Assembly (NCBI GenBank): GCA_024762655.1
Contig: JANTHB010000011.1
Span: forward strand, 1-54,494
Length of the DNA: 54,494 nt
Direction: 5' to 3'
Origin: Bacteroidales bacterium
GTDB lineage: Bacteria > Bacteroidota > Bacteroidia > Bacteroidales > VadinHA17
The notes beneath the pieces were generated by a model. The model saw only the letters and a list, made by a program, of their open reading frames with translations, was not told the origin of the DNA and ran no database searches. The position numbers and the translations under genes are program-made. Positions 5,626 to 20,305 of the stretch are shown piece by piece (positions within the stretch are counted from its first letter, which is position 1; the number at the start of each line of letters is the position of its first letter).

Positions 5626-5871
5626 GACAACAAACCATGAGGTGGACAAAATACGGGGGTTCAATGCCGGCTTAGGGCATGGAATTCTGGGTATGGCTAA
5701 AATCTTTGGGTCCTTACAATATTTTGCCAGAATATGATAACTACTTTCTCCAACTTAGGAAATGGAGAGAAGATTCAGCTAGTGAGTGTGAAAAAATCAC
5801 TATATTTGATGAAAAGGAAACAAAAATTTAAAGCCGGGTTTCTTTTCGCCGGGGAAACCTTTTAAATGCTT
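5626..5871 (+). other. Unassigned stretch between pseudogene and intron relic, with a possible 50-residue ORF
   Basis: No recognisable gene. An ATG at 5679 opens a 50-codon frame ending at TAA 5829-5831. Its product begins MEFWVWLKSLGPY and is rich in charged residues towards the end. I recognise no family. It has no obvious signal or membrane segment, so it may be chance or a leftover of the element that inserted here. Confidence 0.2.
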
Positions 5872-5925
5872 GAGCCGTGTACGGTGAAAGTTGCACGTAC
5901 AGATATTAGGGGACGTAAGCTATTT
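5872..5925 (+). mobile_element. Relic of a group II intron 3' end (domain V and part of VI)
   Basis: The sequence GAGCCGTGTACG, then GTGAAAG, then TTGCACGTAC is the hallmark of bacterial group II intron domain V (GAGCCGUAUGCG-GUGAAAG-CGCACGUACGGUUC). It is followed by TTAGGGG, a common intron 3'-terminal context. The expected closing strand ACGGTTC is replaced by ACAGAT, so the lower stem no longer pairs. No reverse transcriptase/maturase frame lies upstream. It therefore looks like a dead 3' fragment left by an old insertion, not a splicing intron. Confidence 0.62.
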
Positions 5926-5949
5926 GGTAAACCAGTAAAAAATAAAATC

Positions 5950-8250
5950 ATGAAAAAAAAATTTACTTTCTTATTATTAGGCTTGCTTGTAACCTTTACA
6001 ACAACACAAGCACAAACCTGGACGCAGATTGGGCAAGACATCTACGGCATAGAAGAAGGTTCCTGGTCCGGCTGGTCTGTGAGTCTAAGTTCTGACGGAT
6101 CAACAGTCGCAATTGGAGCAAAGGGTAGTTATATAAACTACACTCATGTTGACAGCTATGTTCGAGTTTACCAACAAAACCGAAGCGGAAATTGGAATCT
6201 TATCGGGCAAATCGACTCATACGGTAGTTCAGTAAGTTTAAGTTCCAATGGCACAACTGTCGCAGTTGGAGCATCTGATAATAACGAAAACGGCACTAAT
6301 GCCGGTCAGGTTCGGATTTACCAATATCAAGATGAAACCTGGACGCAGATTGGGCAAGACATCAACGGCGAAGCAGCAGGTGACAACTTCGGCTGGGCAG
6401 TAAGTTTAAGTTCCGACGGATCAACAGTCGCAATTGGAGCGCCCCATAGTTACGGAAAAGATTCTTTAGCTAGTACCGGTCAGGTTCGTATTTACCAAAA
6501 CCAGAGTGGGACCTGGGAGCAGATTGGGCAAGACATCAACGGCAAAGCAACAGGTGACAACTTCGGTTTCTCTGTAAGTTTAAGTTCCGACGGATCAACT
6601 GTCGCAATTGGAGCACCCAATAGTTATGGAAACGATTCTATAACTAGAACCGGTCAGGTTCGTATTTACCAAAACCAGAGTGGAACCTGGGCGCAGATTG
6701 GACAAGATATCAACGGCGAAGCATCATGTGACAACACCGGCTGGTCCGTAAGTTTAAATTCCGACGGAACAACTGTCGCAATTGGAGCACCTGGTAATGT
6801 CACGCTCCATACTTGCGCTGGTCGTGTTCGGGTTTACCAGAACCAAAGCGGAACCTGGGCGCAGATTGGGCAAGACATCAACGGCGAAGCAGCAAATGAC
6901 AACTCCGGCCAATCAATAAGCTTAAATTCCGACGGAACAACAGTCGCAATTGGAGCACCTAATAATAACGGAAACTTAATTAATACCGGTCAGGTTCGTA
7001 TTTACCAAAACCAGAGTGGAACCTGGGCGCAGATTGGGCAAGATATCGACGGCAAAACATCAATGGAGAACATAGGATTCTCGGTAAGTTTAAAATCCGA
7101 CGGCTTAAAAGTCGCATTTGGAGCACCAACGGTTGAGAAGCCATACGGCGTCGATAATGCCGGTGTGGTTCGTGTTTATGAGATTCCGCAGCCACCGGTT
7201 ATAACAACTCAGCCGGCTAACCAAACTAATATTTGCCCGGGAGACAATGTTTCCTTTACTATTGCTGCAGATAATATCGATATTTATCCTCCATGGGAGG
7301 TAAACAATGCGTATCAATGGCAGGTAAATGAAGGCTCCGGTTTTGGGGATATTACAAACGGTGGAGTTTATGACAATGCAACTACGGATACCCTCAATAT
7401 AACCGGAGTAACTCTTGCAATGAATAATTTTCAATATCGTTGTGTTCTTACAAACCCAATCGGAAGCACTACAAGCGATACCGCTGTTTTAATAACAGAC
7501 TACGAAGCCCCTGTTCTGGATGTTGCAACACTAACTGATGTTACTGCAGAATGTGAAGTTACTACTTTAACTGCTCCTACTGCAACCGATAATTGTGCAG
7601 GTACTATTACAGGAACTCACAATGTAACATTGCCTATTACAACACAGGGAACAACCGTTGTAACCTGGTCTTATGACGACGGCAACGGAAATACAGTAAC
7701 ACAAGACCAGAATGTAATTATCGAAGATGTTACAAACCCAACAATTACTTGCGTAGGCAATCAAACAATTGATTTATTGGCAGGTGATACAGTTTATACA
7801 GTTACCGGAACGGAATTTGACCCAACGGTAACCGATGATAACTGTAATGTTTCAAGTGTAATAAATGATTTTAACTCAACAGCTACGCTTGCCGGGGTAC
7901 AACTTCCGATAGGAACAACAACAATTGCCTGGGTAGTAACTGATGATGCAGCAAATACAGATACTTGCACATTTGATGTTACGGTAGACGCTTATACCGG
8001 AATTGAAACATTACAACAAAAAGGAACTACCATTTATCCAAACCCGACAAACGGAATTGTAAACTTTAATTTTGCAGTTAACAATATTCAAAAAATAATA
8101 GTTTCAGACGAAACAGGCAAACAGATAATTGAAAAAACAGAAATAAAACAAAGCGATCAGATAGATTTATCAGGTTTTGACAGCGGAATTTATTTTATCA
8201 GCATTCAAACAGATAAGGAAATATTTACAACGAAGATAATAAATAGGTAA
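5950..8250 (+). CDS. Type IX-secreted FG-GAP/HYR-domain surface protein
   Basis: A 766-residue secreted protein. Its order is: a signal peptide (MKKKFTFLLLGLLVTFTTTQAQ), about seven FG-GAP-like units of roughly 56-58 residues (core VSLSSDGSTVAIGAP...GQVRIYQNQSGTW), an immunoglobulin-like segment (PPVITTQPANQTNICPGDNVSF), two HYR-like units (ATDNCAGTITG..., TVTDDNCNVSSV...), and a Por/type IX sorting domain (YPNPTNGIVNF... to FTTKIINR). The start at 5950 is chosen because an in-frame ATG at 5866 would translate the intron relic. The product is probably exported by the type IX system and anchored to or released from the cell surface; adhesion is a reasonable guess but unproven. It is more AT-rich than nearby metabolic genes. 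It shares its architecture with the gene at 14967-17279. Confidence 0.85.
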   Translation: MKKKFTFLLLGLLVTFTTTQAQTWTQIGQDIYGIEEGSWSGWSVSLSSDGSTVAIGAKGSYINYTHVDSYVRVYQQNRSGNWNLIGQIDSYGSSVSLSSNGTTVAVGASDNNENGTNAGQVRIYQYQDETWTQIGQDINGEAAGDNFGWAVSLSSDGSTVAIGAPHSYGKDSLASTGQVRIYQNQSGTWEQIGQDINGKATGDNFGFSVSLSSDGSTVAIGAPNSYGNDSITRTGQVRIYQNQSGTWAQIGQDINGEASCDNTGWSVSLNSDGTTVAIGAPGNVTLHTCAGRVRVYQNQSGTWAQIGQDINGEAANDNSGQSISLNSDGTTVAIGAPNNNGNLINTGQVRIYQNQSGTWAQIGQDIDGKTSMENIGFSVSLKSDGLKVAFGAPTVEKPYGVDNAGVVRVYEIPQPPVITTQPANQTNICPGDNVSFTIAADNIDIYPPWEVNNAYQWQVNEGSGFGDITNGGVYDNATTDTLNITGVTLAMNNFQYRCVLTNPIGSTTSDTAVLITDYEAPVLDVATLTDVTAECEVTTLTAPTATDNCAGTITGTHNVTLPITTQGTTVVTWSYDDGNGNTVTQDQNVIIEDVTNPTITCVGNQTIDLLAGDTVYTVTGTEFDPTVTDDNCNVSSVINDFNSTATLAGVQLPIGTTTIAWVVTDDAANTDTCTFDVTVDAYTGIETLQQKGTTIYPNPTNGIVNFNFAVNNIQKIIVSDETGKQIIEKTEIKQSDQIDLSGFDSGIYFISIQTDKEIFTTKIINR
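6338..7080 (+). repeat. Tandem 168-174-bp repeats inside the FG-GAP gene
   Basis: The 15-base word CAGATTGGGCAAGAC, or a one-base variant, recurs with first bases at about 6346, 6520, 6694, 6862 and 7030. The spacings are 174, 174, 168 and 168. Neighbouring units are nearly identical at nucleotide level over tens of bases, which points to recent internal duplication or gene conversion. All spacings are multiples of three, so gain or loss of a unit would keep the frame open. Confidence 0.9.
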
Positions 8251-8944
8251 GCTGTTTTTAACATAATAGGATTTAAGACTCAGTAAAGCCCAAAAAAGAG
8301 CCAATAAGTTTACATACCTACCGCCTGTCTTTGTGCTGTTTTATTTCAGGATACCTGCTCAATTGAGTTTTAAATTATGCCTGTCCCGTAGCTTTAGCGT
8401 TACGGGATTGGGCTATATCATTGACATTCAATCTTCTGCCCTTAGTGGATTTTACATCTTTGGCAGCTCTCAAGAATCAATGTTTTCTCTTCATTTCATC
8501 AAAATCTACAGTATATTACAGAATAAAGAAATTTCTTAAAACAAACGATCCCCGGGGCAGCCTGTCCGAACGGCGTCAACCGGGCGGGCCCGTCCGAACG
8601 GAGTCAGCCCTGCCCGAAAGAATGAATTCTTTCATTCAGGCAGGCGGGTGAGAGCTCGGGGGAATTCTTTAGATTAAAAGTTCAAAAAGATAATTCTCAT
8701 GTGTACAATTTATTTCACATTTCTGTTGTTCCTGCTATCCATGTAAAAATATTCCACTAACTTTGTAATAATAAGACGGTCCATAAAGGTTGCTTCTTTT
8801 CTGCTAAAAGGACAGGAAGTGGCTTGTAAACGAACTGATTTTGGTTTCCTGCCGGTTCCTGTACATGAACCGGCGACGTAACTTGCCCAGCGTATTGAGG
8901 ATTCTGCCAATAGATAGAAGGAAATAAATTAAAAAGAGAAAAAC
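8251..8944. other. Intergenic region, 694 bases, with composite repeat copy A
   Basis: No convincing coding sequence; short frames here have no recognisable product. The middle holds composite repeat copy A (8525-8680). A TAACTTTG box at 8758-8765 fits the Bacteroidota minus-7 consensus TAnnTTTG and might drive the SDR gene through a leader of about 170 bases, but no clear upstream TTTG box was found at the right distance. Confidence 0.5.
8525..8680. repeat. Composite dispersed repeat, copy A (module 2 present)
   Basis: The outer frame reads AAAGAAATTTCTTAAAAC ... CCCCGGGG ... AATTCTTTAGATTAAAAG, matching copy D at 20255 almost base for base. Between the CCCCGGGG and the closing GGGGGAATTC lies an insert of about 110 bases. 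It has two direct copies of GTCCGAACGGnnTCA followed by CC-rich sequence, then an 8-bp-arm hairpin (GAAAGAAT/ATTCTTTC) flanked by CCTGCC and GGCAGG. Confidence 0.85.
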
Positions 8945-9733
8945 ATGGATTTAGGACTGGAAAACAAACCGGTGCTGGTAATGGCCTCTACCTCAGGAAT
9001 CGGATATGCCGTTGCACTCGAATTTGCCAGGGAAAAAGCAAAGGTTATGTTATTCGGCCGTTCTGAAAAAAAATTACAGGAAGCGCGTTCAAAGATCTTT
9101 TCGATAACACACAATCCGGTAGAGTACATTGTGGGGGATATGACAAAAAAACGAGATATCGAACATGCCGTGAAAGAAACAGCCGGCACCTTTGGAACAA
9201 TATACGCGCTTTTTAACAATACAGGGGGTCCACAACCGGGCAAATTTGAAGACCTTGATGATACGAACTGGAAAGATGCCTTCGAATTAACTTTACTGAG
9301 TTACATCCGCTCCGTTCGTGCGGTGTTACCCATAATGCGAAAAGCAGGGAAAGGCCGTATTGTAAATAACACCTCCTCTTCAATAAAAAGTGCTATTGAC
9401 AATCTCATACTTTCAAACACGTTCCGTACGGGCATTATGGGTTTGACCAAAACACTGAGCAGAGAGCTGGGGCCGGAAAACATCCTGGTGAATGTAATTG
9501 GTGCCGGGAAGATTGCTACCGAACGCGTTAGATATCTCGACTCTGTTATAGCCTTACAGGAAGGGGTTTCTCCTGAAGAATACCGGAGAAAATTTGAAGA
9601 AGGAATTCCACTGAAGCGCTATGGGGATCCTGCAGAAATAGCGAAAATGGTTGTTTTTCTTTGTTCGGAAGCCAATACATACATCACCGGACAGAGTGTG
9701 CTGGTGGATGGGGGCATGATACAGGCCTATTGA
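8945..9733 (+). CDS. SDR-family oxidoreductase with atypical active site
   Basis: A 262-residue cytosolic protein with a Rossmann fold of the classical short-chain dehydrogenase type. It has a cofactor loop STSGIG at residues 15-20, NNTGG at 91-95 in place of NNAG, catalytic Ser in NNTSSS (141-146), and a C-terminal YITGQSVLVDGG. The normal catalytic YxxxK is absent: the aligned segment reads SNTFRTG, placing Ser157 and Arg161 where Tyr and Lys should be. Known SDR subfamilies with an SNxxRxG segment exist, so this is probably a true subfamily trait and not a sequencing error. The substrate cannot be told. The next gene, a secreted laminin-G-like protein, starts 49 bases downstream on the same strand. 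Confidence 0.85.
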   Translation: MDLGLENKPVLVMASTSGIGYAVALEFAREKAKVMLFGRSEKKLQEARSKIFSITHNPVEYIVGDMTKKRDIEHAVKETAGTFGTIYALFNNTGGPQPGKFEDLDDTNWKDAFELTLLSYIRSVRAVLPIMRKAGKGRIVNNTSSSIKSAIDNLILSNTFRTGIMGLTKTLSRELGPENILVNVIGAGKIATERVRYLDSVIALQEGVSPEEYRRKFEEGIPLKRYGDPAEIAKMVVFLCSEANTYITGQSVLVDGGMIQAY

Positions 9734-9782
9734 AGGTTGCTAAATCATCAATAAATATATAGCTTAATTAAATTAAATCATT

Positions 9783-10457
9783 ATGAAACCAAGTCTGATC
9801 GTCATCACTCTCTTATTGTTATCAGGGTCTTTGTCTGCACAAAAAAAGGAAACCATTCCTTTGGCCGGCAATACCAGTCTGGTCCCCGTAAATGTTACCA
9901 TGTCCGTGGAAAACTATTCGGGAAAAAAATCCTTGAAAGTTATTGATATCGGTAAAAATACAGAGGCGAAATTTGTAAAAATCGGGAACCTGATTTTCAA
10001 GAATGGCACCATTGAAATCAATGTCGCCGGGAAACCGGCTGCAGGAGCTGGTAAACAAGCAAGGGGATTTGTGGGTATTGCTTTTAGAATCAAGAATGAT
10101 AATTCGGGATTTGAGTGCATCTACCTTCGGCCGACAAACGGTCGCGCAGAGGATCAGGTCCGCAGAAATCATTCGGTGCAATATGTTTCTTTCCCCGGTT
10201 TTCCCTGGTATAAAATGCGCAAAGAATTTCCGGATAAATACGAATCTTATGTAGATCTTGTACCCGGAGCATGGACAAAAATAAAGATCGTGGTAAAGGG
10301 GAAGCAAGCCAGATTGTATGTTCACGGAAACACCCAGCCTACGCTGATAATAAATGATCTAAAGATGGGCGAAGATACGCAGGGAAGCATCGGATTGTGG
10401 ATTGGACCCGGCACCGAAGCACATTTCTCAGATCTGCGCATTACCCGGGAAGAATAG
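9783..10457 (+). CDS. Secreted concanavalin-like (laminin-G/DUF1080-like) domain protein
   Basis: A 224-residue protein with a signal peptide ending at LSAQ (MKPSLIVITLLLLSGSLSAQ), followed by a single all-beta domain. The segments NGTIEINVAGK, GFVGIAFRIK, FECIYLRPTNGR, GAWTKIKIVVKGKQARLYV and GSIGLWIGPGTEAHFSDLRI follow the pattern of concanavalin A-like carbohydrate-binding or DUF1080-type domains seen in Bacteroidota glycan utilisation. No catalytic residues can be named. It may be co-transcribed with the upstream SDR gene. The export prediction is firm; the ligand is unknown. Confidence 0.72.
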   Translation: MKPSLIVITLLLLSGSLSAQKKETIPLAGNTSLVPVNVTMSVENYSGKKSLKVIDIGKNTEAKFVKIGNLIFKNGTIEINVAGKPAAGAGKQARGFVGIAFRIKNDNSGFECIYLRPTNGRAEDQVRRNHSVQYVSFPGFPWYKMRKEFPDKYESYVDLVPGAWTKIKIVVKGKQARLYVHGNTQPTLIINDLKMGEDTQGSIGLWIGPGTEAHFSDLRITREE

Positions 10458-10595
10458 AATCCCCTTTTTTGCCTTTTCAGGATTATTTCCCTGCTCAAAA
10501 CCAAACATTTGATAAATGGCAGTTATTTTATTGAAAAGGAATCTTCCCGGTCTGATAATTTTAGCAAACCGGAAAGATTTTCGGTCAAAAATATT

Positions 10596-10603
10596 TAACT
10601 TTG
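10596..10603 (+). promoter_or_regulatory. Possible minus-7 box for the sortilin-type gene
   Basis: TAACTTTG matches the Bacteroidota TAnnTTTG minus-7 consensus and lies 84 bases before the start codon at 10687. A TTTTCGG at about 10579 is only a weak upstream-box candidate. Confidence 0.35.
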
Positions 10604-10686
10604 GAAGCAGAAACTTTTGTTACACCTGAACATCCTCATAAATTCATTATCATTAGCAGTAGATAATCCAAAATCATTTTAACCTC

Positions 10687-13600
10687 ATGCACCCATACAT
10701 TCATCCTTCAAAACGGATAAGATTCTTTCTATTATCCCTTTTTTTATTTTTTACCGGTTCACTGGCCTATACAAATGCCCAGCAGATAAATACCGGGCAG
10801 TTAAAGCAATTAAAATTCAGATATATCGGGCCGGTAGGAAACCGCATTATCTCCATAGCGGGGATCCCCGGAGATCCCCTGACCTATTTTGCAGGGGCTG
10901 CTTCCGGAGGGATCTGGAAAAGCAACGATGGAGGCATTCATTGGAAACCGGTCTTTGATGACAAACCGGTTCATTCCATCGGCGCCCTGACGATTGCCCC
11001 TTCCGATCCGCAGGTTATTTATGCCGGAACAGGAGAGAGTTTTATACGCTCCAATATTTCCATGGGCGACGGCGTCTGGAAATCCACCGACGGCGGGAAA
11101 ACCTGGAAACACACCGGTCTGGACAATACCGGACGCATCAGCAGGATCGTAGTACATCCGGATAATGCGGATATTGTCTGGGTGGCTGCGGTGGGCCATG
11201 CTTATTCTCCCCAAAAAGAGCGCGGCGTATTCATGACCACTGACGGCGGGAAAACCTGGAAACAAGTACTCTTTGTGGATGAAAATACCGGCGCCTCTGA
11301 TATCGTCATAGACCCGGAAAACCCCAGGGTACTTTTTGCCGGTATGTGGCAGCTTGAACTGAAAACCTGGACCAGATACAGCGGAGGCCCGGGCAGCGGA
11401 ATATATAAATCTACGGACGGAGGAATGTCCTGGAAAAAACTGCAGAAACACGGCCTCCCGGTGTTGCCCGTAGGCAAGATCGCCCTGGCTATGACCCCGG
11501 CACAACCGGAGCGTGTATATGCCCTGATAGAAACCGGCGACGGGGTTCCTCTCAACGGTAAAAAGACCGAAAGCGGAGAACTATGGCGGTCTGATAACCT
11601 GGGGAAAACCTGGACGCTGATCAACTCAAACAGAAACCTGGGCAGCAGACAGGCTTATTATACACGCTGTGCAGCCTCTCCGGACAACCCGAATGAAGTA
11701 TATTTTATTGCGGATAATTTTCTGGTGAGCATAGACGGAGGGAAAACGGCCCAGGCAGGACCTTCCGATTCACAGCCCAACTGGGATCACCATGAAATGT
11801 GGATTGACCCGACTGACGGAAACCGCATGGTGGTGGTGGGTGACGGGGGGCTCTCCATTTCCATAAACCGGGGAAAATCATGGAACAGGATCCAGTTGCC
11901 GGTGGCCCAGGTTTATCATGTAACCACAGATACGGAAATCCCCTACAATGTTCTGACAAACAGACAGGATGGCCCTTCCATGAAGGGGCCGAGCCGCACA
12001 AATATCGGCAGTATTTTCGGCGCAGGATATATTACATCCGGCATGTGGCATGCCGTAGGCGGCGGGGAAAGCGGTTTCGCTACCCCCGACCCGGAAAACC
12101 CCGATATCATCTGGTCCAGCACCTCAGGGTACGGCCCCCTGGGGGGAATTGTGGTAAAATACAATGAAAAAACCAAACAATACCGCCATACTGAAATATG
12201 GCCCGAACTTACCCGCGGACACCCGGCAAAGGATGTGAAATACCGGTTTCAATGGACCTTCCCCCTGCTTATCTCCCCGCATGATCACAATACCGTATAT
12301 GTCGGAAGCCAATATGTTCACCGCACCACCGACGGCGGGCAGAGCTGGGAAATCATCAGTCCCGACCTGACCCTGAATGACAAAAGCAAACAGGGCTTCT
12401 CCGGAGGTTTAACCGGCGATAATATCAATGTCGAATATGCCGACGTGATCTACGCCCTGGATGAGTCACCTGCCCGGAAAGGCCTGCTGTGGGCAGGTAC
12501 CAATGACGGACTGGTACAGGTGAGCCGTGATGCCGGAAAAACCTGGACCAACGTGACAAAAAACATCCCGGGCCTGCCGGCACTGGGCGTGGTCAGGAAT
12601 ATCGACGCCTCCAAATGGAACGCCGGAAAAGCATATATTACCGTTGACTTTCACCAGGTGGGGAATTTTCAGCCTTATGTCTATAAAACCGAAAATTACG
12701 GTAAAACCTGGAAGAAAATCGTAAACGGAATTTCCTGCGGCAATCTGAACTATGTCCGGAATATCCGTGAAGATCCGGTCCGTCCGGGACTCCTTTACCT
12801 GGGCACCGAGAATGCCCTTTATGTCTCTTTCAACGACGGTGAAAAATGGCAGTCCCTGATGACCAATCTGCCTCACACCCCTATGTACTGGCTTGATGTA
12901 CAGGAACAATTTAACGACCTTGTGGTCGGTACCTATGGCCGGGGCATATGGATCCTGGACGATATCACCCCCCTGCAGCAACTCACCGGAAAAATCACTT
13001 CGTCCGATGCGGCACTCTTCGACCCCAGACCGGCATACCGCTTTCAGCCGGTTACCAGAACCATGGAGTTTTTCCCACAACCCTCTTCCGGCCAGGATCC
13101 GCCTTACGGAGCCACTATTCATTTCTGGCTGACCAAGGCCAACAATCATGTGCATCTGGTCATAAATGATTCGGACGGGAAAACAGTTCGTTCCATGAAC
13201 TTGAAAGGAAAACCCGGGATAAACAGGATCTGGTGGGACCTGAGGAGCGACTCCACCAATCAGGTCGTTTTCAGAACCAAACCCCGCTATGCCGAATGGT
13301 ATCCCTTATCTGCCGGCAGGACACGTAAACAGAGCGGCCTTTCGTTCTCTGTCCTCCAGCCTCCCGGCACCTATACCCTGACACTTACCGTAAACGGAAA
13401 ATCATTCACCAAAAAACTGGAAGTTCTGAAAGATCCGCATTCGGAAGGCTCTTTGCAGGATATCATGAAGCAGACTTCCCTGCTCAATGAACTGTATCAC
13501 GAAATGAATACGGTTGCCTCCGAAATCAATAAAATAGAAAACATCAGAAGACAACTGCTGGATCTAAAAGCCTTGCTCGGTGCCATGAAAGATAAGCAGG

Positions 13601-13917
13601 AGGTGATCCCCGCTGTCGATTCCCTGCATAACCGCCTCCAGTCTTTTGAAAACAAACTGGTCCAGTTGAAAATTACGGGAACAGGACAGGACGAACTTCG
13701 CTATCCGGTAAAACTGGCAGGACGCATTGCTTACCTGGCTTCCATTGTGGCGGTTTCCGACTTCCCTCCGACAAAATCTGATTACGAAGTGCATCAGATC
13801 CTGAAAAAAAGGCTGGAGGAGTACACTGAAGAATTGAATACATTGCTGGACAAACCTTTTGCCTCCTTTCTGGAACTCCTGAAAGATCACAATATCGGAC
13901 CGGTGATTACAGAATAG
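10687..13917 (+). CDS. Secreted VPS10/sortilin-type beta-propeller protein (BNR/Asp-box repeats)
   Basis: A 1076-residue exported protein. The signal peptide ends near SLAYTNAQQ. The first 750 or so residues hold many Asp-box/BNR motifs (S/T-x-D-G-G-x-x-W: KSNDGGIHWK, KSTDGGKTWK, MTTDGGKTWK, KSTDGGMSWK, RTTDGGQSWE, VSRDAGKTWT), forming one or two large propellers like the VPS10/sortilin N-terminal domain. A WILDDITPL linker leads to an Ig-like segment and a helical C-terminal tail (residues about 930-1060) with heptad character. Bacteroidota encode many such proteins of about 1050 residues, often annotated as glycosyl hydrolases, but the Asp-boxes are structural and no sialidase arginine triad is evident. 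There is no sorting domain at the end, so a periplasmic location is likely. Confidence 0.85.
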   Translation: MHPYIHPSKRIRFFLLSLFLFFTGSLAYTNAQQINTGQLKQLKFRYIGPVGNRIISIAGIPGDPLTYFAGAASGGIWKSNDGGIHWKPVFDDKPVHSIGALTIAPSDPQVIYAGTGESFIRSNISMGDGVWKSTDGGKTWKHTGLDNTGRISRIVVHPDNADIVWVAAVGHAYSPQKERGVFMTTDGGKTWKQVLFVDENTGASDIVIDPENPRVLFAGMWQLELKTWTRYSGGPGSGIYKSTDGGMSWKKLQKHGLPVLPVGKIALAMTPAQPERVYALIETGDGVPLNGKKTESGELWRSDNLGKTWTLINSNRNLGSRQAYYTRCAASPDNPNEVYFIADNFLVSIDGGKTAQAGPSDSQPNWDHHEMWIDPTDGNRMVVVGDGGLSISINRGKSWNRIQLPVAQVYHVTTDTEIPYNVLTNRQDGPSMKGPSRTNIGSIFGAGYITSGMWHAVGGGESGFATPDPENPDIIWSSTSGYGPLGGIVVKYNEKTKQYRHTEIWPELTRGHPAKDVKYRFQWTFPLLISPHDHNTVYVGSQYVHRTTDGGQSWEIISPDLTLNDKSKQGFSGGLTGDNINVEYADVIYALDESPARKGLLWAGTNDGLVQVSRDAGKTWTNVTKNIPGLPALGVVRNIDASKWNAGKAYITVDFHQVGNFQPYVYKTENYGKTWKKIVNGISCGNLNYVRNIREDPVRPGLLYLGTENALYVSFNDGEKWQSLMTNLPHTPMYWLDVQEQFNDLVVGTYGRGIWILDDITPLQQLTGKITSSDAALFDPRPAYRFQPVTRTMEFFPQPSSGQDPPYGATIHFWLTKANNHVHLVINDSDGKTVRSMNLKGKPGINRIWWDLRSDSTNQVVFRTKPRYAEWYPLSAGRTRKQSGLSFSVLQPPGTYTLTLTVNGKSFTKKLEVLKDPHSEGSLQDIMKQTSLLNELYHEMNTVASEINKIENIRRQLLDLKALLGAMKDKQEVIPAVDSLHNRLQSFENKLVQLKITGTGQDELRYPVKLAGRIAYLASIVAVSDFPPTKSDYEVHQILKKRLEEYTEELNTLLDKPFASFLELLKDHNIGPVITE

Positions 13918-13923
13918 TTTGTT

Positions 13924-13931
13924 TATCTTTG
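13924..13931 (+). promoter_or_regulatory. Minus-7 promoter box before the plug-domain gene
   Basis: TATCTTTG matches TAnnTTTG exactly and lies 33 bases before the ATG at 13964, a suitable spacing. It begins only 7 bases after the stop codon of the preceding gene, which argues for independent transcription. Confidence 0.45.
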
Positions 13932-13963
13932 ATAAGTGCACGATACATTAAAAAACATTCATC

Positions 13964-14650
13964 ATGCGTTTACGCTTCATTAAGATAATATTTGGATTGC
14001 TCATAGCCATGGGTTCCGTAGGGTCCTCCCCCGGGCAGACCAAAACGATTCATGGGTTGGTCACCACTTTTGACAGTATTCCCCTGATCGGCGTGAGAGT
14101 CCGGGTAAAAAGCTCGAAAAAGACGGTATATACCGACACCCTCGGACATTTCACGGCAACCTGTCTGCCCAAGGATAAAATTCAGATCACTGCCAATGGA
14201 TTCATAAAACGGAATATTAAAATCAGGGAGAAGGTCAGGTATGTACTTGTAAATCTTAAGCTGAAACCTTCTCCCGGCAGTGCGGATATTGCCATCGGAT
14301 ACGGATATGTCAGGGACAGGGATAAGCTCTTTGCTGCCTCCCGGTTAAGTGGCAATGAACTGGATATGTCACACTATAATAACATCTACGATGTGATCAA
14401 ATCCCGGTTTCCGGGGGTGCATATTGAAAACGGAGAGATTATCATCCGCGGCTCCCAGTCGGTAATGAGCAGCAATGCCGCTTTGCTGGTTGTGGACGGC
14501 TCTGTTGTTGACCAGGGCACTTTCGCTGCCATTGAACCTTCGGATATTGCAAGTATTAATATCATAAAAGACGGAGGCGCAGCCATATATGGCGCCAGGG
14601 GATCCAACGGCGTAGTCATTGTAAAAACCAAAAACGGAAGCCAAAAATAG
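13964..14650 (+). CDS. Orphan CarboxypepD_reg plus TonB-receptor plug protein without barrel
   Basis: A 228-residue exported protein. It has a signal peptide (MRLRFIKIIFGLLIAMGSVGSSPGQ), a carboxypeptidase-regulatory-like beta-sandwich (KTIHGLVTTFDSIPLIGVRVRVK to LVNLKLKP, residues about 27-93), then a SusC-type plug (NIYDVIKSRFPGVHIENGEIIIRG, AALLVVDGSVV, IEPSDIASINIIKDGGAAIYGARGSNGVVIVKTK). The plug ends where a 700-800-residue beta-barrel would normally begin, and the frame closes cleanly with TAG, with no barrel remnants downstream. Short proteins of this kind are known in Bacteroidota; their role is unsettled and could be as an accessory or regulator of outer-membrane transport. A damaged 5' copy lies at 5417-5625. 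Confidence 0.85.
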   Translation: MRLRFIKIIFGLLIAMGSVGSSPGQTKTIHGLVTTFDSIPLIGVRVRVKSSKKTVYTDTLGHFTATCLPKDKIQITANGFIKRNIKIREKVRYVLVNLKLKPSPGSADIAIGYGYVRDRDKLFAASRLSGNELDMSHYNNIYDVIKSRFPGVHIENGEIIIRGSQSVMSSNAALLVVDGSVVDQGTFAAIEPSDIASINIIKDGGAAIYGARGSNGVVIVKTKNGSQK

Positions 14651-14966
14651 GAAATCCCCCGGCTAACCAAACAGGCGATCCTCGTCATCTGTCTGATTTA
14701 CCTGATATTACAACTTATATCACAACCAATTTTTGTTATTTCCAATAACATCTTCACCATACGACCCGGTATTCGGCTGAATACCTGTCGAATACCGACA
14801 AGTACCTACGTAGGCGCCTACGTAGATCACTCACAACTCACTCAATTACTTCGCCTTAAAGTATATTTATTTTAATCAGGTACAAACCGGTTCATCACAA
14901 TAATGCGCTTGAGTTATCATCCGGGTTATTTTTACAGATAATAAAGATTGCCAGGAGCCTAAGCGG
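14651..14966. other. Intergenic region between convergent genes, 316 bases
   Basis: No gene. It lies between the 3' ends of the plug gene (plus strand) and the FG-GAP gene (minus strand). Its main content is the hairpin cluster at 14769-14825; no T-rich tail follows directly. Confidence 0.6.
14769..14825. repeat. Three adjacent hairpins ending in a perfect 20-bp palindrome
   Basis: GGTATTC/GAATACC (7-bp stem, 4-base loop) at 14769-14786 and TGTCG/CGACA at 14787-14801 are followed by the perfect palindrome CTACGTAGGCGCCTACGTAG at 14806-14825. The last is shared, with one mismatch, with 29424-29447. Placement between convergent genes suggests a transcription-end or REP-like element. Confidence 0.75.
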
Positions 14967-17279
14967 TTATTGTTTAACGATCCTGAAAGTGGAAATCCCT
15001 TTAGAGGTATTGATTTTCACGAAATAAACAGCATTAACATAATGTGACATATCAATGGTCATTTGTTTGCGGGTATTTTCTGTTTTATAGAGAAGTTCAC
15101 CGGTCACCGTAACAATAGTAACAGATATCGGCTTTTCCGGTAAAATAATATTTAAATCATCTTTCACAGGATTTGGAAACATATTAATGGCATCAGCTTT
15201 CGCATCCTGAACGGCAGTTGCCCGATTAACCGTTAACGAAATGTGGCAATTATTACTATTATTGGAGTTATCGCTAACTATCCAGAGAATATCGGTTGTC
15301 CCCAACGGAAAAGAATGCCCCGCCAGACTTATGCTACCGTTAATGTTGTTTGTTATATTATTGACCGAACAATTATCCTCTGTTAATACATCTAGTTCTG
15401 TTCCTGTAACCAAATACATAGAATCACTGACATTCGCAATTACATCCATATCACCCGGGCAGGTAATGGTTGGAGCAAGAGTATCTGCAACCAGAACGGA
15501 AATTGTGTCGTATAGAATATTCCCGGCACCATCTTCCAGCTTGATGTAAACAGAATTATAGCCCGTCTGCGAGCAGTCGAACGATGAAGGAGACGCAGAA
15601 AAGTTTATTATACCGCAATTATCGGTAGCATCAATATCATCAAGCGTTAAACTTGCATTGCCGAGCGAGTCAAGATAGATGCTTGGGCTGGCATTTGAAA
15701 AAGCAGGAGAAATGGAATCTGTTGTCAACAGGGCAATATCACTATATTCATAGCCATACTGATTGGATACTCTGCATCTGAACCGGGCACTGTCTAAATC
15801 AGGATCATCAACATTAAAATAGAGTGTGTTTGTTAAGGCACCCTTAAAACCAGACACATATTCAAGTAAAGTAAAATTTGCAGTGCCGGCATATTTAATT
15901 TCCCATTGGTAAGCAATAATACTATCACCTGACACAGAAAAAGCTACACTGTCTCCTATACATATATTAAATAAAGAGTCAGGTTGTTGTGTTATTTCAG
16001 GCATATGAGGCGTAAAGATATATGCCGAACCTGATCTGGAATCTATATCACTATCATATTTGGCACCTGAGATAATAAAATCACCGTCTATGGATACGCT
16101 GTAACCAAACAAATCATTTTGATTGCCATCCGACGCTGTTAATTTAGCGTTTAATTGCCAGTTCCCGGCATTATTATAATAAACATAGATAGCTCCTGAA
16201 GCCGGTTCATTTCCATTATCATGATCGGCGCCGACAACAATTTTATCATCACTAATAGCTACTGATCCACCAAAGTCAATTTCCGTCTGAGCACCATCCG
16301 GGATAAGTTTTGCATCCAATTGCCACGTGTGTAAACCCGTAACATAATGATAGCTGTAAACATATGCAGCTCCTGCGTTGAGGCAGACTTCGTCATTTTT
16401 TGGAGAACCTGCCACTAAAGTTTTGTCTGATTTGTTAAAACTCAGGGAAGTACCGAAATTATCATAATCCCCTGCGTCAGAGGGTGTCAGTTTTGCATAT
16501 TGCTGGTAGGTGCCATCGGACAGTATTTCAAAAACATATACGGCTCCCCTGGAGGTACCGCCACCATCACATCCGGGCGCCCCAATGGCAATAAAAGGAT
16601 AAGCCAGGGAAACAGATTTACCGAAATTATCATTCGCCGCTCCGTCATCCGGTTTAATCTTAATTTCCAAATAACTGTTGCTGGATGAGGAGGCAGTACT
16701 ATCTATATAGACATACACCGACCCCGATTGATTTCCGTTATCATCGTCACCGGGTGCGCCTACTGCAATTATTTTTCCTGTTGATGACCCAAAGTCATAT
16801 TCTTCCATTTCTGTGGATGATCCAAAAATATCATAATCGCTCCCGTCTGATGCTGTTATTTTATTATAAGCCATCCATACGTGTCCGCTTAAAACATTCA
16901 GGTAGGCAACTTCATAGACTGCACCTGCATTTATACCCTTTTCATCATCGAAAGAAGCACCGACCACAATATGCTCGCCCACATTTGAAACAGAAATTCC
17001 AATATTATCATCAGGGCCACCAGCCATATTAAAATTTTCATACTGCCATATATTTCCAGCTTTTCTGGCAATTTTAATATTCCCTGTTTTACCATTACTC
17101 GTTTCTCCACCGGGAATCCCGATTACTGCGATATCATTATTAATATTAACCGAATTACCAAAATATGCATTTGCAGAATCCTGATAAGTCAGCTTTTGCA
17201 ACTCAATAAATGTTTGTGGCATTGCATCTATACCAACAGATATAAAAAGTATGGCCAGGAAGTTTTTTGCTTTCATCAC
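14967..17279 (-). CDS. Type IX-secreted FG-GAP repeat surface protein, second paralogue
   Basis: A 770-residue exported protein. A signal peptide (MMKAKNFLAILFISVGIDAMPQ) precedes about seven FG-GAP units (for example FGKSVSLAYPFIAIGAPGCDG, FGGSVAISDDKIVVGADHDNG, FGYSVSIDGDFIISGAKYDS), an Ig-like segment starting PEITQQPDSLFNICIGDSVAF, HYR-like units (ATDNCGIINFSASP, LTEDNCSVNNITNN) and a Por/type IX sorting domain (INMFPNPVKDDLNI to STFRIVKQ). The domain order is the same as in the gene at 5950-8250, but the propeller units have diverged and lack the near-identical DNA repeats seen there. It is AT-rich relative to the metabolic genes. A cell-surface role is likely; adhesion is only an inference. 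Confidence 0.85.
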   Translation of the reverse strand: MMKAKNFLAILFISVGIDAMPQTFIELQKLTYQDSANAYFGNSVNINNDIAVIGIPGGETSNGKTGNIKIARKAGNIWQYENFNMAGGPDDNIGISVSNVGEHIVVGASFDDEKGINAGAVYEVAYLNVLSGHVWMAYNKITASDGSDYDIFGSSTEMEEYDFGSSTGKIIAVGAPGDDDNGNQSGSVYVYIDSTASSSSNSYLEIKIKPDDGAANDNFGKSVSLAYPFIAIGAPGCDGGGTSRGAVYVFEILSDGTYQQYAKLTPSDAGDYDNFGTSLSFNKSDKTLVAGSPKNDEVCLNAGAAYVYSYHYVTGLHTWQLDAKLIPDGAQTEIDFGGSVAISDDKIVVGADHDNGNEPASGAIYVYYNNAGNWQLNAKLTASDGNQNDLFGYSVSIDGDFIISGAKYDSDIDSRSGSAYIFTPHMPEITQQPDSLFNICIGDSVAFSVSGDSIIAYQWEIKYAGTANFTLLEYVSGFKGALTNTLYFNVDDPDLDSARFRCRVSNQYGYEYSDIALLTTDSISPAFSNASPSIYLDSLGNASLTLDDIDATDNCGIINFSASPSSFDCSQTGYNSVYIKLEDGAGNILYDTISVLVADTLAPTITCPGDMDVIANVSDSMYLVTGTELDVLTEDNCSVNNITNNINGSISLAGHSFPLGTTDILWIVSDNSNNSNNCHISLTVNRATAVQDAKADAINMFPNPVKDDLNIILPEKPISVTIVTVTGELLYKTENTRKQMTIDMSHYVNAVYFVKINTSKGISTFRIVKQ

Positions 17280-17811
17280 TAATTTATTCTTTAATATGCA
17301 ATAATAATAAAAATATTACACCTTGAAAGAGTAATGAAAATAATGGATAAGGATCTGTCATCATCATTCCAAATACACATTATGCGAAAGAACCCGGGAT
17401 TATAGAAATTTTCCGTGTTACTTAGGGAATCTGAAACACTTTCCCTGCACCCTCTCCCGGTTTGCATTTAATTAGTCCTTCATCCCGTAAACGCATTTAT
17501 TTTATTATAAAGAGAAAAATTAGAAGGAGAAGATCTGTTAACCAAAAAATAACGAAATTTCTTAAACCTAAATTTCTTTATTACACCTCACCCAAAACTT
17601 TCTTCGAAAGTTTTGACCTCTCCTCAAGGAGAGGTGTAGATGGAACCCCGGGGCAGCCCGTTTGAACGGCTTCAGCCGGGTGGACCTGTCCGACTGGCGT
17701 CAGCCAGGCGGGAGCCCCGAGGAATTCTTTTGATTAAATAACCCTCTGATATCGGAGACCCGGCATCAGGAGGGTCTAATAATATCATTTTTTCTTTTAC
17801 TTTTGTCTTCC
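17280..17811. other. Intergenic region, 532 bases, mostly composite repeat copy B
   Basis: The first 270 bases are AT-rich and presumably hold the promoter of the minus-strand FG-GAP gene, but no clear box was found. Repeat copy B occupies 17551-17740. The remaining bases lead into the isoprenylcysteine methyltransferase-like gene. Confidence 0.5.
17551..17740. repeat. Composite dispersed repeat, copy B (both modules present)
   Basis: The frame reads ACGAAATTTCTTAAA ... CCCCGGGG ... GGAATTCTTTTGATTAAA. Module 1, between the left arm and CCCCGGGG, starts AATTTCTTTATTACACCTC and contains two hairpins: AAAACTTTC/GAAAGTTTT and ACCTCTCC/GGAGAGGT. Module 2, after CCCCGGGG, has two diverged copies of the GTCCGAACGGnnTCAGCC unit. 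Confidence 0.82.
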
Positions 17812-18369
17812 ATGAGCAAGGTTTTTATTATAATCTGGTCCTTGTGGTTTCTTTCGGAGATTTTCCTGAACCGTTTGTTACGTTCCGGAAAACAGGACCA
17901 GAAGGATCAGGATAAAGGTTCTCTGCGCCTAATATGGATCACCATCGCTGCAGCCAATACCCTCGGAGTTCTCTTTGCTGTTTATATCCCGTTGCCGATA
18001 GGTCATGGTCTTACGCTGCCTTTGACAGGTCTGGCGATCATTGTCTGCGGAATGATAATCAGGTTTGTGTCCGTATGGTCGTTGGGGAAATACTTTACCG
18101 TGGATGTTACCATCCGTAAAAACCATAAAATTAAAACGGACGGGATCTATAAACGGGTCAGGCATCCCTCCTATACCGGCTCCATCCTCTCGTTCATCGG
18201 TTTCGGCATATCCCTGAACAACTGGATCAGTCTGGCAGTGGTCGCCATCCCCGTCATTCTGGCCATGCTGTACAGGATCCGTATTGAGGAACAATTGCTT
18301 ACGGAACAGTTTGGCAAAGAATATCTGGATTATAAAAAAAAGACCAGGCGACTGATTCCCTTTTTTTAA
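17812..18369 (+). CDS. Isoprenylcysteine carboxyl methyltransferase (ICMT/PEMT)-like membrane protein
   Basis: A 185-residue membrane protein with four to five hydrophobic segments. The C-terminal half has the family hallmark: TDGIYKRVRHPSYTGSILSFIGFG (SAM-binding RHPxYxG) and RIRIEEQLLTEQFGKEYLDYKKKTRRLIPFF (the E-E-x-x-L...F-G-x-x-Y-x-x-Y motif). Bacterial members methylate unknown small molecules or lipids, since bacteria have no prenylated CaaX proteins. The ATG at 17812 is preferred over an upstream in-frame TTG at 17803. It is flanked by repeat copies B and C and has no operon partner. Confidence 0.85.
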   Translation: MSKVFIIIWSLWFLSEIFLNRLLRSGKQDQKDQDKGSLRLIWITIAAANTLGVLFAVYIPLPIGHGLTLPLTGLAIIVCGMIIRFVSVWSLGKYFTVDVTIRKNHKIKTDGIYKRVRHPSYTGSILSFIGFGISLNNWISLAVVAIPVILAMLYRIRIEEQLLTEQFGKEYLDYKKKTRRLIPFF

Positions 18370-18370
18370 T

Positions 18371-18500
18371 TAAGAAATTTCCTAAAACAAAATTTCTTTG
18401 TTACACTTCCCTCAAAGCTTTCTCCGAAAGTCTTGACTTCTCTGCAGCAAGAGGCATGAAAAGCATCCCTTGCCCCGGGGAATTCTTTTAATCATAAAAA
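18371..18500. repeat. Composite dispersed repeat, copy C (module 1 present, module 2 absent)
   Basis: The left arm TAAGAAATTTCCTAAAAC is followed by module 1 (AATTTCTTTGTTACACTTC, then AAAGCTTTCTCCGAAAGTCTT, decayed relative to copy B). The CCCCGGGG then joins directly to AATTCTTTTAATCATAAA with no module 2. It starts 2 bases after the upstream stop codon. Confidence 0.78.
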
Positions 18501-18538
18501 TCATCGTTTCCGCTTTTTTTCGTAATTTTAAACAAAAA

Positions 18539-18688
18539 ATGTTCGGGAAAAGCAAAAGAACAACGCCATACAACAAATCCGGGAAGCTCTCTTTTGCAGA
18601 TATGGATGGCCACACGAACCCGCAAAAACGGATCAAGCTGCTGCAAAATGAAAAAGACATAGAAGTCAGGATCAGGAAAATGCAATAA
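18539..18688 (+). CDS. Small basic hypothetical protein, 49 residues
   Basis: The ATG at 18539 opens a 49-residue frame, MFGKSKRTTPYNKSGK..., that is strongly basic and hydrophilic, with a helical C-terminus rich in Lys, Arg and Glu (NPQKRIKLLQNEKDIEVRIRKMQ). An upstream in-frame ATG at 18470 lies inside repeat copy C and is less likely. It has no signal peptide or membrane segment and I recognise no family. The upstream TTCGTAATTTTAAAC is AT-rich, but no clear promoter box is seen. It could be a genuine small gene or a chance frame. Confidence 0.38.
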   Translation: MFGKSKRTTPYNKSGKLSFADMDGHTNPQKRIKLLQNEKDIEVRIRKMQ

Positions 18689-18791
18689 GGTTCGCAGTTT
18701 ACAGGCAAATACATAAAATACAATATTTAACGGTTTCTGAAACTACAACCCAGGGCGTATTAAACAATGCATTCACAAAAACAATAATAGT

Positions 18792-19898
18792 ATGAAAAAG
18801 TTAATTTTCCTGTTTCTGATTTCCGGTCTTTTGGTTTATTCCGCACACACACAGACAAAACTCGATTCAATCCTGCCTGTACGGGGTTTATGTATAGCGG
18901 CCCCCACACCGGCAGGAGTAAACCAATTCATTGATTTCATCAGAAACGAACTTGTTCCGGGGAAAATTAACACGCTTGTCATACGGATTGACTACCGGTA
19001 CCGGTATAAGTCACATCCCGAGCTGATTGACTCAAATGCCCTGTCCAAAAAAGAGGTAAAGAAAATCGTTAAGGCTTGCAGGGAGGGAGGCATAAAGATC
19101 ATCCCGCAGGTAAATATGCTGGGGCATCAATCCTGGTTCTCAAACGTCGGGAAACTGCTGGAGGCCTATCCCCAGTTCAACGAAACCCCGGATGTCCCCC
19201 TGGATAAAGGCATTAATAAATGGCCCAACAAATGGGGATTGTATTGCCTGAGCTATTGTCCGCTCCATCCCGATCTTCATGCAGTGACATTTGATGTTAT
19301 CGACGAAATTGTGGACGCTTTTGAAGCCGATGCTTTCCATGCGGGTATGGATGAAGTCTTTTATATAGGCATGGATAAGAGATGCATAGGCAGGGATCCT
19401 GCCGAATTATTTGCAGGTGAAGTCAGGGCCATCAGAAATCACCTGGCGCTCAGAAATAAAAAACTCTGGATTTGGGGCGACCGCCTTATCGACGGCAAAA
19501 CAACCGGCATCGGCATGTGGGAAGGAAGTTATAACAATACTTACCGGGCCATCGACATGATCCCGAAAGATGTGGTGATCAATGACTGGCACTATGAACG
19601 GCCCGACCCTACTGCCGCCTATTTTGCCCTCAAGGGCTTTCATGTGATCACCTGTCCGTACCGGCTCCCGGAGGTGGCCCTGAAACAACTTCAAATGATG
19701 ATGGATTTTAGGGAAAATGCAACCGCTGTCACGAAAGACAGGTACCAGGGGATCATGGAAACCGTCTGGACCAGCGCCGAAAATGCCATGGATCAGTATT
19801 ACGGCCGGAAAGAGATCAAAGACTCCGGAAGAGGAAACTGGGTAAAGACCTTCAAAGCCCTCTTACAGGAAATTGCAAAACTTGACCGGGGGGATTAA
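18792..19898 (+). CDS. GH20-like glycoside hydrolase (beta-N-acetylhexosaminidase family)
   Basis: A 368-residue exported protein; the signal peptide MKKLIFLFLISGLLVYSAHTQ ends near residue 21. It is a catalytic TIM barrel without the extra N-terminal domain of classic hexosaminidases. FHAGMDEVFYIG puts the adjacent Asp187-Glu188 pair at the end of strand 4, as required for substrate-assisted GH20 catalysis. Other matches are KIIPQVNMLGHQSW (residues 102-115), LWIWGDRL, and MWEGSY/VINDWHYE with conserved aromatic residues. It is shorter than most GH20 enzymes (500 or more residues). The sugar specificity cannot be read off. A periplasmic location fits the glycan-degrading context. Confidence 0.82.
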   Translation: MKKLIFLFLISGLLVYSAHTQTKLDSILPVRGLCIAAPTPAGVNQFIDFIRNELVPGKINTLVIRIDYRYRYKSHPELIDSNALSKKEVKKIVKACREGGIKIIPQVNMLGHQSWFSNVGKLLEAYPQFNETPDVPLDKGINKWPNKWGLYCLSYCPLHPDLHAVTFDVIDEIVDAFEADAFHAGMDEVFYIGMDKRCIGRDPAELFAGEVRAIRNHLALRNKKLWIWGDRLIDGKTTGIGMWEGSYNNTYRAIDMIPKDVVINDWHYERPDPTAAYFALKGFHVITCPYRLPEVALKQLQMMMDFRENATAVTKDRYQGIMETVWTSAENAMDQYYGRKEIKDSGRGNWVKTFKALLQEIAKLDRGD

Positions 19899-19997
19899 CA
19901 TATTATTATGGCTCATATAAAAATATATTCAGAAGACCTCATGAAAATTTTGGGCACCTTTAACCCGTGTAATTAAAACAAACTATAAGAAAATAAT

Positions 19998-20216
19998 ATG
20001 ACTAAATTCTGGATTACCGGTATTGCATTATTTATAATTTTCACATTCATTATAGCCAAACTCTCAATTAAACATTACAAAGAGGAGAACGGTGAAAAAA
20101 TGTGGAAGCAATTTGGTATCAGAACCCGGTACTGGCAAGTGGTTGTGCTGGTAAGCCTGATACTAACCTTCCTGGTGCTGTTCATATTGAAATGGACGAG
20201 TATTCTGACAATATAG
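19998..20216 (+). CDS. Small two-helix membrane protein, 72 residues
   Basis: A 72-residue protein with two clear hydrophobic segments, FWITGIALFIIFTFIIAKL (residues 4-22) and VVVLVSLILTFLVLFILKW (48-66). They are joined by a charged loop KHYKEENGEKMWKQFGIRTRYW, giving a helical hairpin. An AAGAAAAT lies just before the ATG. No family is recognised. The amphipathic design and position after a terminated gene suggest a real small membrane protein. Confidence 0.55.
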   Translation: MTKFWITGIALFIIFTFIIAKLSIKHYKEENGEKMWKQFGIRTRYWQVVVLVSLILTFLVLFILKWTSILTI

Positions 20217-20254
20217 AATATCTTTCCAACTGATTATCATAAGATAAAACAAGT

Positions 20255-20305
20255 AAAGAAGTTTCTTAAAACGAACGATCCCCGGGGAATTCTTTAGATT
20301 AAAAG
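20255..20305. repeat. Composite dispersed repeat, copy D (minimal, both modules absent)
   Basis: A 51-base element: AAAGAAGTTTCTTAAAAC, then GAACGATCCCCGGGG, then AATTCTTTAGATTAAAAG. It is the shortest form and matches the outer frame of copy A nearly base for base, with A's 110-base insert missing at the CCCCGGGG. Confidence 0.85.

What the first reader, a model, noticed from the sequence alone, without database searches (positions are those of the whole stretch)
8525..20305. A palindromic repeat family built from two independently present modules
Four intergenic elements (8525, 17551, 18371, 20255) share the same outer frame: AAAGAAATTTCTTAAAAC on the left, a CCCCGGGG in the middle, and GGAATTCTTT(n)nATTAAAA on the right. 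Module 1 (a hairpin-rich block between the left arm and CCCCGGGG) is present in B and C and absent from A and D. Module 2 (a block with two GTCCGAACGG-type direct repeats, at the CCCCGGGG) is present in A and B and absent from C and D. All four combinations therefore occur. Copy D looks like an empty or collapsed site for copy A. This suggests a non-autonomous element built by nested insertion, or one that loses modules by recombination. I do not know of a described family with this plan.
Basis: seen in the sequence. Interest (0 to 1): 0.76.

Follow-up and report, generated by a model that had tools for sequence, protein, structure and literature searches.

The report
Mosaic mobile repeat with swappable hairpins
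A small mobile DNA repeat in this bacterium carries a core hairpin, picks up an unrelated hairpin repeat in its palindromic hinge, and seems to lose pieces cleanly between short repeats, which explains the four forms seen; the plan resembles known modular repeats of other bacteria.

Summary
The left arm (26 nt, up to 3 mismatches) occurs 35 times in this genome (reversed control 0) and in 5 of 117 family genomes. In 27 parsed elements M1 and M2 combine freely: the 18 without extra modules give 4 with both, 5 M1 only, 5 M2 only, 4 neither. The modules differ in nature. M1 looks like the core of the frame. M2 is an independent 28-nt hairpin repeat, standing without frame or M1 at 13 of 13 loci examined in six related genomes, and nested inside another palindrome in two places here. 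M1-less forms fit deletion between short direct repeats; one copy keeps the last 28 nt of M1. At copy C's site one congener has the M1+M2 form, another an empty site. At five loci a congener lacks the element and shows 5 nt in its place. Best reading: a non-autonomous mobile repeat remodelled by nested REP-like insertion and slippage-type deletion; mobilising enzyme not identified. BOX elements and REPs lodged in palindromes are precedents for the plan; I found no description of this sequence family.

The parts
8522..8679 (+). Copy A: L - CCCCGGGG - M2 - M2 - S - R (no M1)
8522..8551 (+). left arm L of copy A
8550..8557 (+). CCCCGGGG hinge of copy A (right partner degenerate, CTCGGGGG at 8655-8662)
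8558..8609 (+). module 2 of copy A: two M2 units
8609..8648 (+). palindrome S of copy A, uninterrupted; interrupted by an M2 unit in C16 and C154
8661..8679 (+). right arm R of copy A
17548..17739 (+). Copy B: L - M1 - CCCCGGGG - M2 - M2b - CCCCGAGG - R
17578..17645 (+). module 1 (M1) of copy B: two hairpins
17646..17653 (+). CCCCGGGG left of module 2 in copy B
17654..17714 (+). module 2 of copy B
17715..17722 (+). CCCCGAGG right of module 2 in copy B
17721..17739 (+). right arm R of copy B
18368..18496 (+). Copy C: L - M1 - CCCCGGGG - R (no M2). Congener G006 has L-M1-M2-R at the orthologous site, congener G002 an empty site
20252..20304 (+). Copy D: minimal L - CCCCGGGG - R

Best explanation
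A non-autonomous, lineage-restricted mobile intergenic repeat. Its basic form is frame + core: left arm L (AATAAAGAAATTTCTTAAAACGAAC), core module M1 (two hairpins), a GC-rich hinge CCCCGGGG, right arm R (GGAATTCTTTNGATTAAA). SHOWN: whole elements are present or absent at orthologous sites; M1 and M2 vary independently; M2 is an independent 28-nt hairpin repeat that sits inside other repeats; an element with only the tail of M1 exists. INFERRED: (1) the frame was moved by some transposase acting in trans; (2) M2 entered the hinge by nested insertion, as a REP-like element; (3) modules are lost by slipped-strand deletion, because they are hairpins bounded by short direct repeats (CCCCGGGG on both sides of M2; AAAACGAA / AAAACCGAA bounding the stretch before M1). 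Recombination between the first and last CCCCGGGG gives D; between L's AAAACGAA and the copy before M1 gives the L-M1 fusions B and C; loss of M2 between its CCCCGGGG flanks gives C; loss of M1 with M2 kept gives A. Any regulatory effect is not shown. The two rivals about the enzyme below are not exclusive with this reading.
For: Parse of 27 elements: 18 without extra modules split 4 M1+M2, 5 M1, 5 M2, 4 neither; 9 carry further modules. Junctions: elements without M1 keep CGAT(C/T)CC-like sequence before the hinge, L-M1 fusions lack it (read by eye). C136: L-CGATCCCCGG joined to the last 28 nt of M1, 25 of 28 identical including CCCCGGGG; the 20 nt without the hinge reach 17, reached by 0 of 5000 mononucleotide shuffles. 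Direct repeats: within B only 9 of 8600 position pairs 40-120 nt apart are at least 7/8 alike. In-situ change: copy C's site, G006 L-M1-M2-R against G000 L-M1-R, G002 empty; G000 C43 against G002 C56, a 14-nt difference between GAAATTTCTT repeats and an M2-like stretch only in G002. Nested insertion: S intact in C46, C17, C11; interrupted at TTTC|ATTC by a 28-nt M2 unit in C16 and C154 (in C22 an M2 stretch follows the same point but the right half of S is not seen); M2 without L, R or M1 at 13 of 13 loci examined, of 42 matches listed for those six genomes. Mobility: empty sites for C79, C46, C45, C17a and a C42 composite of two elements in G002; 5 of 5 show exactly 5 nt. Hairpins: copy B folds at z -4.9 against 200 dinucleotide shuffles; for A, B and C none of 200 mononucleotide shuffles folded as well. 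Slippage over a hairpin between short direct repeats is documented (PMC4134008, passages).
Against: The 5-mers of the G002 empty sites (ATCAA, GTCAG, AGCAA, ACAAA, AAATA) are not copies of the ATAAA / TTAAA at the filled ends, so a true target-site duplication is not shown; G006 gave 5, 5, 4 and 7 nt at four loci. No autonomous partner was found and none was sought systematically. Direction is not proved for M2: G010 has an empty hairpin hinge (CCCCGAGGCCAGCCTCGGGG) that could be the state before insertion or after loss. Minimal copy D folds no better than chance (91 of 200 shuffles as good). Copies A, B and D have no informative orthologous site in G002. The C125 copy has M2 inverted in the hinge, which simple slippage does not give. 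M1 as core is not clean: 3 of 16 M1 loci examined elsewhere have no clear L or R 16-mer by my cut-offs.
Confidence: 0.72

Rival explanations
1. REP/BIME-type element: the frame and its hairpin modules are moved by Y1 (RAYT, IS200-like) transposases, as proposed for BIMEs.
For: Six Pfam Y1_Tnp matches in the genome, plus partial relatives of the C15 protein on C110 and C14. The C15 gene sits between an L arm with spacer and a roughly 200-nt hairpin block that recurs 82-88% identical directly beside L arms on C103, C55, C42 and C26. The 5' blocks of the C14 and C31 genes match module M3 of long elements at 71-80% over 83-88 nt. A role of RAYTs in BIMEs is proposed in PMC2817692 (passages incl. 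abstract).
Against: Relatives of the C15 protein at >=60% identity over its length are in G014, G001, G004, G031 and G027, which have no L arm at up to 3 mismatches; L-bearing G002 and G010 have only about 34% relatives, G003 and G006 none at E<=1e-8. The C15 frame shows no ordinary start codon ahead of its domain (the ORF listed is 121 aa from TTG), so it may be decayed.
Confidence: 0.3
2. Classical MITE moved by a DDE transposase, with imperfect terminal inverted repeats (AAAGAAATTTC / GGAATTCTTT) and a 5-nt target duplication; autonomous partner lost.
For: L and R are imperfect inverted repeats; 19 of 27 elements have ATAAA at the left end and 18 of 27, by eye, TTAAA at the right; the empty sites count these 5 nt once in 5 of 5 G002 loci.
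Against: The flanking 5-mers are nearly the same at every locus and not equal to the 5-mer of the empty site; G006 gives 5 nt in only 2 of 4. No insertion sequence with these ends was found, though no systematic search for one was made.
Confidence: 0.3
3. A functional RNA or terminator element whose modules tune gene expression.
For: Strong hairpins in M1 and M2; 25 of 27 copies lie between simple longest-ORF gene calls.
Against: No fixed orientation to neighbouring ORFs: 9 divergent, 7 and 3 codirectional, 5 convergent, 3 undetermined of 27 (ORF calls, not annotation). No Rfam match at gathering scores in the window. Several sites are empty in congeners.
Confidence: 0.08
4. Random decay of one repeat that only looks modular.
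For: Copies are diverged and some junctions are degenerate.
Against: Same junctions recur across many copies; M2 exists on its own elsewhere.
Confidence: 0.02

Closest known systems
BOX elements (Streptococcus pneumoniae, S. suis)
   Same: Outer frame (boxA/boxC, or boxE/boxF) with inner modules present in variable number and kind (boxB, boxD), 67-637 bp in S. pneumoniae, share features of MITEs, vary in length between genomes (PMC3049150: passages, one section).
   Different: Different phylum. No sequence comparison with BOX was run. Here one inner module (M2) is shown to be an independent repeat of other genomes, and its slot is a self-complementary CCCCGGGG. BOX is reported to have TIR and TSD; here neither is settled.
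REP / BIME with RAYT transposases
   Same: Intergenic mosaics of hairpins from several families, some next to Y1 transposase genes; hybrid BIMEs described (PMC2817692, passages).
   Different: A fixed asymmetric AT-rich frame L...R encloses the mosaic; carriage of the C15-type Y1 protein does not track the frame.
REPs lodged inside palindromes (GTAG-15, GTAG-23, H. neapolitanus CGTC-1)
   Same: A REP or REP dimer placed inside a palindromic host sequence, in one case a GC-rich CCGSSCC...GGSSCGG palindrome (PMC3733652, first part of one section and passages).
   Different: Here the palindrome is the hinge of another mobile repeat.

Membership tests
BOX-like modular interspersed repeat | constant outer modules with a variable set of inner modules | tested here: met
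   27 parsed elements
BOX-like modular interspersed repeat | sequence homology to boxA, boxB, boxC | not tested
   no BOX sequence was fetched or compared
MITE | terminal inverted repeats | tested here: inconclusive
   imperfect, about 10 nt, ends not flush; read by eye
MITE | target-site duplication | tested here: inconclusive
   5 nt counted once in 5 of 5 G002 sites and 2 of 4 G006 comparisons, but the sequence is not duplicated faithfully
MITE | autonomous partner with the same ends | not tested
   only Y1 transposases were searched in this genome; 420 nt before each of ten R arms were read by eye
BIME / RAYT-mobilised | hairpins flank a Y1 transposase gene of the genome | tested here: inconclusive
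   true for hairpin blocks H and M3; L is beside the C15 gene; not shown for R
BIME / RAYT-mobilised | repeat abundance follows the cognate transposase across genomes | tested here: not met
   for the C15-type protein and the L arm only
CGTC-tagged REP (for M2) | CGTC tag, 8-9 bp stem starting with A-T pairs, 4-5 nt loop, CCA-like tail | tested here: not met
   M2 (CCGTCCGACYGGCGTCAGCCGGGCGG) holds CGTC but its inner stem is about 5 bp of G-C pairs; read by eye against the description

The most novel reading that the evidence does not exclude
The self-complementary CCCCGGGG hinge is a true exchange slot: unrelated hairpin cassettes are loaded, removed and inverted at it without a dedicated recombinase, so that one mobile frame gathers cassettes from several repeat families. 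Three slot states (collapsed, empty hairpin, filled), one inverted M2 (C125) and a hairpin-for-hairpin swap in module M3 (152-154 nt K against a 22-nt hairpin between the same flanks) are what this predicts.
Probability: 0.12. Interest if true: 0.7.

Novelty: new variant of a known kind. Interest (0 to 1): 0.42.

Why it matters
It gives a readable case in which nested REP-like insertion and hairpin-bounded deletion can be told apart module by module within one repeat family, with empty, filled and intermediate states in congeners. If the slot reading were right it would show how bacterial mosaic repeats are assembled without a site-specific recombinase.

Tried and rejected
Random decay: rejected. 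Known RNA family: no Rfam match at gathering scores in the window. Terminator or regulator with fixed orientation: not supported. Autonomous element with the same ends: not found, but I only read 420 nt before each of ten R arms by eye, so this is no real test. Y1 protein as predictor of L arms: failed. Orthologous sites for copies A, B and D in G002: A lies in a stretch rearranged there; the B and D intergenic regions were not alignable.

Rows dropped. Elements: the 27 are L arms with an R arm within 800 nt (overlapping R matches of one element merged) plus C42:16716, C74 and C43; L arms without R within 800 nt, cut by contig ends or not fetched were left out of the roughly 57 L places. C74 has no recognisable L and C43 no recognisable R. 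C136 is counted as 'neither' although it keeps the M1 tail, and S was counted with M2. Empty sites: of 23 flank fragments made, 5 (C8, C9:47655, C16, C55, C15) were not sent, mostly as they ran into repeats; 18 were sent and all 18 matched G002, 11 of 18 G006. Of those 18 loci, 5 entered the 5-nt count; C37, C10, C53, C6, C118, C136, C17b and C26 were displayed but did not align across the junction; C1, C2, C9:60122, C35 and C36 aligned on one side only. Window copy C was left out of the count because of A/T runs. M1 and M2 elsewhere: 16 M1 loci and 13 M2 loci were examined, those that had been given locus ids and that I picked, not every match; two of the 13 have an L-like best match of 13/17 and one an R-like of 13/18, one above the random maximum of 12.
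Full report
OBSERVATION. The four copies were read directly: A 8522-8679, B 17548-17739, C 18368-18496, D 20252-20304. All share an AT-rich left arm L (consensus AATAAAGAAATTTCTTAAAACGAAC), a GC-rich hinge CCCCGGGG and a right arm R (GGAATTCTTTNGATTAAA). M1 is in B and C, M2 in A and B. The window is one whole contig (C11) of a 3.44-Mb draft genome, G000, in 165 contigs. Copy A has 58 blastn matches in it at E<=10, 50 below 0.001, some being pieces of one element. The 17-nt left arm has 57 places at up to 2 mismatches against 5 for the reversed pattern; the 26-nt arm has 35 at up to 3 mismatches against 0. R is found exactly at 13 places, but at up to 3 mismatches 104 against 51 in the control, so weak R matches mean little.

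MODULES GENOME-WIDE. I parsed 27 elements with a typed module library. Of the 18 without further modules, 4 hold M1 and M2, 5 M1 only, 5 M2 only and 4 neither, so the four forms in the window are common forms. Nine carry further modules (named X, M3, P, K, G, H, S here), up to 713 nt. One copy (C125) has M2 in inverted orientation between the hinges. L arms without a nearby R were left out of this count.

M1 IS PROBABLY THE CORE, M2 IS A GUEST. M1 copies in other genomes usually come with the frame: of 16 loci examined in G002, G003, G006 and G010, 12 have an L-like 16-mer at 14 or more of 16 upstream, 8 an R-like 16-mer at 13 or more downstream, 13 at least one of these, 3 neither (no null was run for these 16-mers). 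M2 behaves otherwise: at 13 of 13 loci examined in G001, G004, G014, G008, G033 and G019 (42 matches listed for these genomes) it stands alone, with best L, R and M1 matches nearby of at most 13/17, 13/18 and 22/41 against random maxima of 12, 12 and 23 in 30 trials. Some of those sit inside low-complexity repeats. In G000 the palindrome S is intact in C46, C17 and C11 (copy A) but split at the same point, TTTC|ATTC, by a 28-nt M2 unit in C16 and C154; in C22 M2 follows the same point and the right half of S is not seen. That is nested insertion, seen directly.

LOSSES. Elements without M1 keep L's own CGATCC-like stretch before the hinge; L-M1 fusions lack it (by eye). This is what deletion between L's AAAACGAA and a second copy in front of M1 would leave; G010 still has a long form L-X-M1-R with AAAACGAA...AAAACCGAA, and the fusions show both variants at the junction (AAAACGAA in C6, C10 and C17; AACCGAA in C37 and C43). 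Element C136 keeps L-CGATCCCCGG and the last 28 nt of M1 (25 of 28; for the 20 nt without the hinge 17, reached by 0 of 5000 shuffles): most simply, M1 was there and was lost. In copy B only 9 of 8600 position pairs at 40-120 nt are at least 7/8 alike, the two hinges being among the alike. Copy B folds at z -4.9 against 200 dinucleotide shuffles; for A, B and C none of 200 mononucleotide shuffles folded as well, for D 91 did. Slippage over a hairpin between short direct repeats is documented (PMC4134008, passages).

COMPARISON WITH CONGENERS. At copy C's site, downstream of a methyltransferase-like gene (PF04191/PF04140), G006 holds L-M1-M2-R, G000 L-M1-R, and G002 nothing. At the C43 site G002 differs from G000 by 14 nt between GAAATTTCTT repeats and by an M2-like stretch. 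Flank fragments of 18 elements were searched: 18 of 18 matched G002, 11 of 18 G006. For five loci the empty site could be aligned across the junction, one of them a composite of two elements on C42: all five in G002 leave exactly 5 nt between the host sequence before ATAAA and the host sequence after TTAAA; in G006 it is 5, 5, 4 and 7 for the four loci tested. The 5-mers differ between loci while the element ends hardly do, so this is an accounting that looks like a target duplication but is not proof of one.

DISTRIBUTION. The L arm occurs in 5 of 117 family genomes searched: G000 35, G010 6, G003 3, G002 2, G006 2, controls 0. An exact 26-mer scan of named genomes found five loci of one MAG titled 'Chlorobiota bacterium isolate M_MetaBat.158'; two of them contain G010 loci at 100% identity over 3.1 kb. 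Of seven different G010 copies viewed, five are L-X-M1-R (two with runs of N), one an L-M1 fusion and one cut short; the hinge is an empty hairpin where seen.

MOBILISING ENZYME. The genome has six Y1_Tnp matches and partial relatives of the C15 protein on C110 and C14. The C15 gene stands beside an L arm and a hairpin block that recurs next to other L arms. Yet relatives at >=60% identity are in genomes without L arms, and L-bearing genomes other than G000 have distant ones (G002, G010) or none (G003, G006). I give Y1 mobilisation 0.3, a DDE transposase 0.3, and leave the rest open.

KNOWN KINDS. BOX elements share the plan of outer frame plus variable inner modules (PMC3049150, passages and one section). 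RAYT-BIME mosaics are close in content (PMC2817692, passages). REPs inside palindromes are described (PMC3733652: passages and the first part of one section). PMC6006769 was seen in passages only. Text searches for a Bacteroidota family of this plan (listings of 3 of 3, 15 of 32, 12 of 22 and 10 of 90 papers) showed none that I recognised as it; the library holds open-licence papers only and sequences cannot be searched in it.

VERDICT. The plan is not without precedent, but I found no description of the family, and the guest-in-hinge arrangement, with an inverted guest and collapsed, empty and filled hinges, is a variant worth a strain-level test.

Noticed in passing
window 5416-5627 and 13987-14200: Direct repeats of about 210 nt (88-90% identical) bracket an 8.4-kb stretch that aligns to G002 only in small pieces.
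   Followed up: partly
window 14803-14825 and 29426-29448; L121:2531-2552: Another palindromic repeat, TACCTACGTAGGCGCCTACGTAG, in two window places and 22 nt identical in another contig.
   Followed up: no
window 54023-54329: Stretches similar to the hairpin flanks of the Y1 transposase genes (54216-54329 at 79% to L125; 54023-54072 to L123 and L124) at the window's end.
   Followed up: no
C28:24880, C47:11760, C42:27507, C64:1238 (loci L035, L041, L050, L053): R arms without a recognisable L arm or modules in the preceding 420 nt shown (less at one contig end); origin unexplained.
   Followed up: partly
C42 and C46 long elements against C79 and C26: Module K (152-154 nt, folds as a long imperfect palindrome) stands in place of a 22-nt hairpin between identical flanks ATGAATA and CACAACGCA inside module M3.
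   Followed up: partly
L125 (C15 end) and C16 start: 91 nt identical at the two contig ends; a Y1 transposase gene may lie inside a longer composite that continues into C16 with L, M3, K and M1.
   Followed up: partly
L129:1-235: A copy in the named MAG appears to sit between CCATTCC and GGAATGG followed by T-rich DNA, as if inside a terminator hairpin.
   Followed up: no
window 5866-8250 (+) and 14967-17279 (-): Two large proteins with FG-GAP and HYR domains and a Por secretion tail, so probably secreted.
   Followed up: no
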